Below, one piece after another: positions 14,754 to 20,130 of a stretch of DNA of 64,000 nt. Numbering within the stretch: the stretch's first letter is position 1; every line of letters starts with the position of its first letter. The position numbers and the translations under genes were made by a program. The DNA lies in the NCBI GenBank assembly GCA_009746045.1, contig RPFO01000667.1, forward strand, positions 7,217,046 to 7,281,045. The letters are read 5' to 3'. The notes beneath the pieces were generated by a model that was given only the letters and a program-made list of their open reading frames with translations, was not told where the DNA came from and ran no database searches. This DNA comes from Mesostigma viride. Lineage: Eukaryota > Streptophyta > Mesostigmatophyceae > Mesostigmatales > Mesostigmataceae.

Positions 14754-17700
14754 ATGAGCGAGGCTGAGAAGGCTTTCTTCGAGAAGATAACTCTGGAGAA
14801 TGTCAAGAGAGCCTTTGCACGGAAAGGATATACCTGGTTCGAAGAGGGGACGTACAATCTGGTAAAAATAAACTGCGTGTTTCATGAGGCCATATCGTAA
14901 TCACGTACTAGCTGTTGACCGTGCGGGCTGCCATGTCGATGTGTCATCAGTCATACATTCATGCTTCTCATTATGATTGCTTGCCCTCATTCTGAAATGC
15001 CCCTTTCCATTTAATGTCCTGTTACTCATATAACCCGTTTGCTATGCCAACTTCGCAAATCCTGTTGTATAGTAGAAAAATTACTTGTACGGACTACTGC
15101 TTTTCAATGCATACCAGACTGCACCATATATGCATGCTTGTCCAGCTTTGCCCGACGGCCCGACTGAGGGACCGTTCTTTCTTGATCCCTGATTCAGCCG
15201 TGAAATCTTCGTACGAACTTTTCTCCTGCTCGCAGAATGAATCTAGTGTGCGATGCACAAGGGCGGTTTGCCATCGCGGACAAATCTGATTAACTTACTA
15301 TTACTATCTTTCTTCCACAAATTTATAAGATCCTCCTCCTCCTCCTCCTCCTCCTCCTCCTCCTCCTCCTCCTCCTCCTCCTCCTCCTCCTCCTCCTCCT
15401 CCTCCTCCTCCTCCTCCTCCTCCTCCTCCTCCTCCTCCTCCTCCTCCTCCTCCTCCTCCTCCTCCTCCTCCTCCTCCTCCTCCTCCTCCTCCTCCTCCTC
15501 CTCCTCCTCCTCCTCCTCCTCCTCCTCCTCCTCCTCCTCCTCCTCCTCCTCCTCCTCCTCCTCCTCCTCCTCCTCCTCCTCCTCCTCCTCCTCCTCCTCC
15601 TCCTCCTCCTCCTCCTCCTCCTCCTCCTCCTCCTCCTCCTCCTCCTCCTCCTCCTCCTCCTCCTCCTCCTCCTCCTCCTCCTCCTCCTCTCCTCCTCCTC
15701 CCCCCCCCCCCCCCTCCTCCTCCTCCTCCTCCTCCTCCTCCTCCTCCTTCTCCTCCTCGCCCCCCCCCCCCCCTCCTCCTCCTCCTCCTCTCCTCCTCCT
15801 CCTCCTCTCCTCCTCCTCCTCCTCCTCCTCCTCCTCCTCCTCCTCCTCCTCCTCCTCCTCCTCCTCCTCCTCCTCCTCCTCCTCCTCCTCCTCCTCCTCC
15901 TCCTCCTCCTCCTCCTCCTCCTCCTCCTCCTCCTCCTCCTCCTCCTCCTCGCCCCCCTCCTCCTCCTCGCCCCCCCCCCCTCTCCATGAACAGAACATCT
16001 TCGGCGTGCGCTGCAAGAGCACGTCTGCGGACAAGTTTGATGACTACATTTGCGTGGCGTTCAGGGACTCGCGCGGCGTCGTGGTGCTGAAGCGGTGGAA
16101 GGTGCGTGTTGGTGTTCTTGGATGCCACAAAGGGTTCGCTCCCTTCTATATGTGCTGCACAAGTTGGAAGATGCGCCATGCGTTAGGTATGCAGTGCAAG
16201 TTGGGCATGCTGCAATTATGGCCTTGAGCCAAGACTTATAGAGTCGGGTTGGGAGAATGTAAAGGCCTCTGCTGGTGCCTGGGGGGGGCTTAGGGGCATA
16301 ACCATGGTAATGCCCTTGTCTTTGATCTTATTCCCCTCCCTCCCTGGCTTGCCTGACTTTCTTACTTACTTACTTACTTACTTACTTACTTACTTACTTA
16401 CTTACTTACTTACTTACTTACTTACTTACTTACTTACTTACTTACTTACTTACTTACTTACTTACTTACTTACTTACTTACTTACTTACTGATGCCTTGT
16501 TTCATCGGCCGATAAGTTACTTGTGCGCCCTTATTTGGAGATCATGCAGCATTGACAAGTGTGCTTAGATCGCATAATATTTGTTGTAATGCAAACCCTA
16601 TTTCACAGTGGTTGCAGTCCCCAGCCTTAAGGGTTGAGGGAAGGCATTAGGCAGTTGGGTGTGTCCACATCCCTTGGAGGTGTTGTGCCTCCAGTGCTGT
16701 TCCCATTTTTTTATGGCCTATGGTTAGGGTGCAAGGAAGCAGGTTGGGGTAGCATGCCAGCCTCAGCCCAAGCCTGGAAGGTACTGCTTGCAGCCTTGCA
16801 CCATGTTTGCCATGCTTGCACGGGGATGACTGGATCAGCGGCCCGGCTGACAATCGTTCCTTGCTTCTTTCTTCTGGCCTGTCACATGGGTTGCTTGGTT
16901 CCGTGCAGGCCACCACGGACCCAGGCCTTCACTACTTGAAGAACCCAGTCAACCACAAGGTGGGTGGGGGCAAGCACGCTTAATCATCTTAACTCTCAAT
17001 TTTCATCTGTGCGATTAGGTGTTTTCTAAGCAGCCCTTGTCATTGTCCTTGCTTCCTTCTATGGCAGGCACGATGTCTGTGACAGAACTATTCAATTGAA
17101 ATCTCAAGTACAGTGTAAGATTGAGAAAGCATTTGTCCTTTTGCAGCCAGCCTACACGAGGATAAGCTGCAAGCCTGTTCCTATTCGGTCGTGGAAGTGC
17201 TCTAGCGCATGGCTCTTTTTGGTGTTTCTATTGCTCAAGCTGGCATCACTGGATGGTACCGTGTATCCATGAGGCAACACATTTTCTGGTTTTTCAGCCT
17301 CCCCTTGGTGCCGGGCATGCACCTCCGCTTGGGCAGGTAAGGCTGATGAGAACATGCTGGGCACTGCATAGTTATGACTGAGCTTGATATTTGTTAGCAT
17401 CCACGCCCAGTATGATTTATTCTTGGTCTGCAAGCTGGTTAGGCACATTATATCCGGTAATATGCTAATAATAGACAGTGTCATGCTGAATGGCTAAGCT
17501 GGAACCTGTGCTTGCATTTTTTGATGAACCACGGTCTTTGCTGCTTGCACCTGCACCAACTGGTGCAGGGTACAGCCATCCTCGTGCCTGACCAGTACCG
17601 CGGCGCCTTCACTGTGGGGAAGCATGCTAACCTGTAAGTGTGTGGCTCCTGTGCTTTGGTCATGGAATAAACTTCCTTCGCTGCTTCTTATACACGCCGT

Positions 17701-20130: not shown

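What the first reader, a model, noticed from the sequence alone, without database searches (positions are those of the whole stretch)
14754..20130. A bacterial/phage-type protein gene domesticated in a green-lineage genome, now with five introns
Seen: six exons with matching phases encode 204 aa whose block order ([63 protein letters not shown]) is intact. Known, from memory: the same order occurs in a small family of Bacteroidetes and phage proteins of about 190 aa. Inferred: horizontal transfer, then gain of at least five spliceosomal introns and very large intron growth. Flanking eukaryotic repeats inside the introns argue against contamination.
Basis: partly seen in the sequence, partly recalled or inferred. 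Interest (0 to 1): 0.9.

Follow-up and report, generated by a model that had tools for sequence, protein, structure and literature searches.

The report
Phage-type cell-wall enzyme in green alga
A gene of a kind otherwise seen in bacteria and their viruses, predicted to cut or re-join bacterial-type cell-wall peptides, has become an ordinary spliced and duplicated gene in the nuclear genome of a single-celled green alga of the lineage that also holds the land plants.

Summary
The six exons at 14754-20130 are real. Joined, they give an intact 204-aa protein with five GT-AG introns, identical to public Mesostigma viride gene model Mv22102-RA.1. A second copy 26 kb downstream keeps all five intron positions; its exons 2-6 are under purifying selection against copy 1 (dN/dS about 0.29, 95% 0.16-0.47). 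No further copy was found in the 440-Mb genome. 4594 homologs reach E<=1e-3; of the 120 listed, only the two Mesostigma proteins come from the eukaryote collection. Named relatives are mostly Bacteroidota and phages, including crAss-like phages. A confident model (pLDDT 96) resembles L,D-transpeptidases/L,D-carboxypeptidases (46 of 46 listed entries); a His and a Ser-x-Gly-Cys are conserved in 214 of 215 aligned relatives. The protein has no Pfam match. Best reading: a horizontally acquired, spliced L,D-peptidase/transpeptidase-like gene acting on peptidoglycan, perhaps the alga's own plastid peptidoglycan. Donor, substrate and transcripts are untested. 'Very large intron growth' is not supported: the lengths are ordinary for this alga.

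The parts
14754..14861 (+). copy 1, exon 1 (MSEAEK...GTYNL), start codon of the public model
   Evidence: identical to P0001 residues 1-36
15994..16101 (+). copy 1, exon 2
16909..16959 (+). copy 1, exon 3
17569..17633 (+). copy 1, exon 4 (ends in phase 2)
18602..18773 (+). copy 1, exon 5, holds the putative catalytic H149 and S164-A-G-C167
   Evidence: conservation
20020..20130 (+). copy 1, exon 6 with stop codon
14676..14753 (+). possible in-frame N-terminal extension of 26 aa from an upstream ATG at 14676 (A at -3, G at +4); not in the public model
41225..41311 (+). copy 2, recognisable exon 1 ([10 protein letters not shown]...GTYNL); its upstream ATG is out of frame
42151..42258 (+). copy 2, exon 2
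42892..42942 (+). copy 2, exon 3
43602..43666 (+). copy 2, exon 4
44659..44830 (+). copy 2, exon 5 with H and SAGC retained
45794..45904 (+). copy 2, exon 6 with stop codon

Best explanation
Copy 1 is a retained nuclear gene of Mesostigma viride derived from a bacterial or phage gene. After transfer it gained at least five spliceosomal introns and was then duplicated, so the introns are older than the duplication. Its product has a predicted L,D-transpeptidase/L,D-carboxypeptidase fold. By analogy with that fold, Cys167, helped by His149, would attack the peptide stem of peptidoglycan through a thioacyl enzyme and then trim it (water as acceptor) or re-join it (amine as acceptor). Shown here: gene structure, homology, selection between the copies, a confident fold prediction, a conserved motif. 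Inferred: transfer into the alga (about 0.93), catalysis on peptidoglycan (about 0.75), trimming rather than cross-linking (about 0.55). For the target I commit weakly to the alga's own plastid peptidoglycan (about 0.4), with prey or invading bacteria close behind (about 0.35).
Against: The protein has no Pfam match. YkuD matches of relatives are below the cut-off where scores are shown (15.3 and 13.6 against 23.4 bits, 2 of 10 scanned), and 3 of 62 match with best E 0.0089 while an unrelated family (DHR-2 Lobe A) matches 6 of 62 with best E 0.013, so these matches alone prove nothing. Plain Foldseek against PDB had no match with E<=0.001 and its top rows are unrelated; most VIA-align Z are under 8, the level that the tool's note calls possibly only a common arrangement. 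One relative, L093, has Thr at the Cys position. The tree does not resolve which lineage is closest. No transcript was seen. The 204-aa form has no recognisable targeting sequence by eye; the 26-aa extension is untested. The first exon of copy 2 is out of frame with its ATG. Homologs beyond the 120 listed were not inspected for eukaryotes.
Confidence: 0.75

Rival explanations
1. The enzyme is used against bacteria: as a digestive or defensive lysin on prey or invading bacteria rather than on the plastid's own peptidoglycan.
For: Relatives are phage lysin-like. A trophic-mode model predicted M. viride NIES-296 as phago-mixotroph with score 0.764 (PMC8245530, passage).
Against: Two other M. viride strains scored 0.006 and 0.323 in the same paper. 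No secretion signal is evident by eye in the 204-aa form or the 26-aa extension (no predictor was run).
Confidence: 0.35
2. The protein has kept the fold but works on another substrate (not peptidoglycan), as a domesticated amidase or transpeptidase.
For: The alga's two copies form a distinct branch (stem 0.64 changes per column, support 100/99). No targeting signal is established.
Against: Copy 1 shares 30 invariant residues, the motif among them, with the 61 other proteins of the alignment, which suggests the same chemistry.
Confidence: 0.2
3. Bacterial or phage contamination, or a chimeric assembly.
For: The assembly does seem to hold bacterial contigs: long single-frame PBP hits on C2011, C602 and C933.
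Against: The locus lies at 7.2 Mb of contig C2133. It has five GT-AG introns, four of them with tandem-repeat arrays, a diverged second copy with the same introns, and kinase and retrotransposon neighbours.
Confidence: 0.01
4. Ancient vertical inheritance in eukaryotes with loss elsewhere, or descent from the plastid ancestor.
For: None found; but only 120 of 2262 and 120 of 4594 hits are listed, so more distant eukaryotic members could exist.
Against: None of the 14 prokaryote loci is titled cyanobacterial; 10 are Bacteroidota (a scan for close relatives only).
Confidence: 0.04

Closest known systems
phrog_3000 / Bacteroidota and crAss-like phage proteins of about 200 aa (unknown function)
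   Same: Homology over most or all of the length, 32-45% identity in phage records, 36-47% in prokaryote loci, about 50% in the best database hits; conserved motif
   Different: The loci and phage genes examined are uninterrupted frames; here five introns and a nearby duplicate
phrog_33083 (annotated endolysin, 456 positions)
   Same: Residues 45-190 match its C-terminal module, E 3e-17
   Different: The algal protein has no counterpart of that profile's first 290 positions
YkuD-fold L,D-transpeptidases and L,D-carboxypeptidases (Csd6, Pgp2, DpaA, YkuD, LdtMt2)
   Same: Predicted fold and the His / Ser-x-Gly-Cys pattern
   Different: No significant sequence match; two N-terminal helices that most of the listed alignments do not cover
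Horizontally acquired bacterial genes in eukaryotes that gained introns (recalled as a kind)
   Same: Nuclear location, introns, purifying selection, prokaryotic relatives
   Different: A phage-rich, lysin-like family in an early-diverging streptophyte; the only eukaryotic case among the hits listed

Membership tests
YkuD (PF03734) L,D-transpeptidase family | Score above the curated Pfam cut-off (23.4 bits) | tested here: not met
   P0001: 0 families; relatives only weakly: 3 of 62, best E 0.0089, and 2 of 10, best 15.3 bits
YkuD (PF03734) L,D-transpeptidase family | L,D-transpeptidase (YkuD) fold | tested here: met
YkuD (PF03734) L,D-transpeptidase family | Catalytic His and [ST]-x-G-C cysteine (motif recalled) | tested here: met
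   Present in P0001; H, S, G in 215 of 215 and C in 214 of 215 relatives. Superposition of the side chains on known active sites not tested
YkuD (PF03734) L,D-transpeptidase family | Activity on peptidoglycan stem peptides | not testable with these tools
   needs purified protein
phrog_3000 | Profile match over most of the profile | tested here: met
   E 2.2e-30, protein 40-197, profile 42-198 of 209
Gene acquired by a eukaryote from bacteria or phage | Integrated in the nuclear genome with spliceosomal-type introns | tested here: met
Gene acquired by a eukaryote from bacteria or phage | Nested inside a prokaryote/phage clade with support | tested here: inconclusive
   Among bacterial, phage and unnamed rows in an unrooted tree, sister group unresolved
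Gene acquired by a eukaryote from bacteria or phage | Spliced transcripts | not testable with these tools
   No reads held. Liang et al. describe gene models from ab initio, homology and transcript data (PMC6947507); whether Mv22102 is from that set and which data made it was not checked

The most novel reading that the evidence does not exclude
A phage-lineage lysin-type L,D-peptidase was recruited into the plastid peptidoglycan system of an early streptophyte, giving a green-lineage plastid a second class of wall enzyme beside the penicillin-binding proteins; the 26-aa basic extension at 14676 would be its targeting peptide.
Probability: 0.2. Interest if true: 0.8.

Novelty: new member of a known kind. 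Interest (0 to 1): 0.52.

Why it matters
Claims of gene transfer from bacteria to eukaryotes are often open to doubt about contamination (recalled). Here a diverged pair of copies with five shared introns and measurable purifying selection makes contamination very unlikely and indicates that the gene is kept. If the enzyme acts on plastid peptidoglycan, it offers a case of a non-penicillin-binding wall enzyme in the plant lineage; if it acts on bacteria, it would be an antibacterial or digestive tool of a green alga. The analysis also gives a predicted fold and catalytic residues to a large, phage-rich family that PHROGs files as of unknown function (phrog_3000).

Tried and rejected
Pfam and NCBIfam gave no family for the protein; phmmer and profile searches of PDB sequences gave nothing below E 0.038. 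Foldseek against PDB alone gave nothing significant; the fold assignment rests on the VIA-align second look. Contamination was considered and rejected. Naming the donor was tried with two trees of 65 rows. The 218 sequences (120 listed proteins and 98 locus translations) were thinned to 68 rows; three rows, L045, L058 and L076, were 2-residue failed extractions and were left out, by the program and by hand. Both inputs were capped lists (120 of 2262 proteins, 80 of 548 viral stretches), so nearer relatives of other kinds may be missing. The quick tree put the algal pair in an 8-row set with P0003, P0049, P0063, P0099, P0106 and P0107 (SH-aLRT 80; inner fork 91); the careful tree left it in a polytomy, with its bootstrap not settled. 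A canonical YkuD gene in the genome was sought and not found (the same search rings in 6 of 14 control genomes, but a gene cut into short exons could be missed). An optional 39-nt in-phase exon at 17298-17336 (read) is not in the public model and was set aside. Literature: the lists (20 of 40; 10 of 27; 11 of 11; 5 of 5; 10 of 222; 15 of 29; 12 of 213; 10 of 244) show no title or abstract start that describes this gene. Of the M. viride genome papers only passages found by word were seen: PMC6947507 holds 'horizontal' and 'peptidoglycan' 0 times; PMC7027972 holds 'horizontal' twice, both in a figure legend about bars, and 'peptidoglycan' 0 times. That is not proof that the gene is undescribed.

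Full report
What is there. The window is 64 kb of a 440-Mb, 2243-contig genome, at 7.22 Mb of contig C2133. A protein search returned the same 204 aa as Mesostigma viride gene model Mv22102-RA.1, and a neighbour model Mv22103-RA.1 at 79% identity. From this I infer that the genome is that of M. viride, a streptophyte green alga.

Introns are ordinary. Liang et al. report a mean intron length of 1141.9 bp in M. viride (PMC6947507; passages seen). Four of the five introns here are shorter than that and one a little longer; what is notable is that a gene of an intron-free family has them at all.

A second copy. tblastn of the two proteins on the window places copy 2 at 41225-45901. Exons 2-6 have the same lengths, intron positions and phases and GT/AG ends as copy 1. 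The introns align only in short stretches: three of five give any match, besides one long weak alignment across exons 3 and 4 and the intron between them (59% identity). NG86 gives dN 0.12 and dS 0.42; YN00 gives 0.11 and 0.70. The bootstrap median of dN/dS is 0.29 (0.16-0.47), with 0 of 500 at or above 1. The introns therefore predate the duplication, and the protein has been under purifying selection on at least one side since. Exon 1 of copy 2 is recognisable, but its upstream ATG is out of frame; the public model Mv22103 lacks exon 1 and has a single Met before exon 2 whose origin was not mapped. A protein search of the whole genome gave 9 exon hits, 9 of 9 in this window.

Divergence is uneven: exons 2 and 6 have dS 0.14, exons 3-5 dS 0.71. 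This suggests partial gene conversion of the outer exons, or constraint on them; it is unexplained.

Relatives. 2262 (phmmer) and 4594 (two-sequence profile) proteins reach E<=1e-3; of the 120 listed each time, only the two Mesostigma entries come from the eukaryote collection. The unlisted remainder was not inspected. In the phage collection 24 records match, including crAss-like phages, large Bacteroides phages and P2-like Pseudoalteromonas phages (one of the last looked at). 548 viral-contig stretches encode a relative; 80 were kept. In one-genome-per-species prokaryotes 14 loci match: 10 titled Bacteroidota or groups within it, 2 from one Sphingomonadaceae MAG, 2 from archaeal MAGs; MAG labels may be wrong. 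The gene lies one or two genes away from the terminase in two crAss-like genomes and between tail-tube and tail-assembly genes in ACA1. In one Flavobacteriaceae contig (L092) none of 5 neighbours scanned matched a phage structural family.

Tree. With 65 rows the two algal copies group at 100/99. Their sister group is unresolved: the careful tree shows a polytomy of bacterial, phage and unnamed rows, the quick tree a weak 8-row set. Donor bacterium versus donor phage cannot be told.

Where it acts. A paper states that all streptophyte algae encode all core peptidoglycan enzymes (PMC7455551, passage). In this genome, C1446 carries transglycosylase and transpeptidase pieces in several stretches of one strand, as expected of an intron-bearing class A PBP. 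No canonical YkuD gene was found. So a plastid peptidoglycan substrate is likely available. For bacteria as target: M. viride NIES-296 was predicted phago-mixotroph (0.764), but two other strains scored low (0.006, 0.323) (PMC8245530, passages). An upstream in-frame ATG at 14676 with A at -3 and G at +4 would add 26 residues with three arginines and one aspartate, a possible but untested targeting peptide.

Verdict. This is a well-supported case of a known kind of event (bacterial or phage gene into a eukaryote), with a new predicted function and a duplicate that shows retention.

Noticed in passing
42151-45904 versus 15994-20130: Exons 2 and 6 of the two copies differ far less at silent sites (dS 0.14) than exons 3-5 (dS 0.71), as if the outer exons had been converted.
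   Followed up: partly
23559-33017: LTR retrotransposon between the two gene copies: two direct repeats of about 780 bp, 99.6% identical, with gag, reverse transcriptase, RNase H and integrase zinc-binding matches between them; presumably a recent insertion.
   Followed up: partly
8611-10951 (minus strand): Protein kinase gene split over at least two frames upstream of copy 1 (kinase and kinase C-terminal domains).
   Followed up: no
G000 contigs C2011, C602, C933: Long single-frame penicillin-binding-protein hits suggest bacterial contigs remain in this assembly; they are not the window's contig.
   Followed up: no
17298-17336: A 39-nt stretch bounded by AG and GT, in phase, could be an optional extra exon of copy 1; absent from the public model (read).
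   Followed up: no
L092 8939-10281: In a Flavobacteriaceae contig the homolog is followed by two DUF2589 genes.
   Followed up: no
L093 7998-8561: The Polaribacter member has Thr instead of the otherwise conserved Cys (SAGT), perhaps an inactive relative.
   Followed up: no
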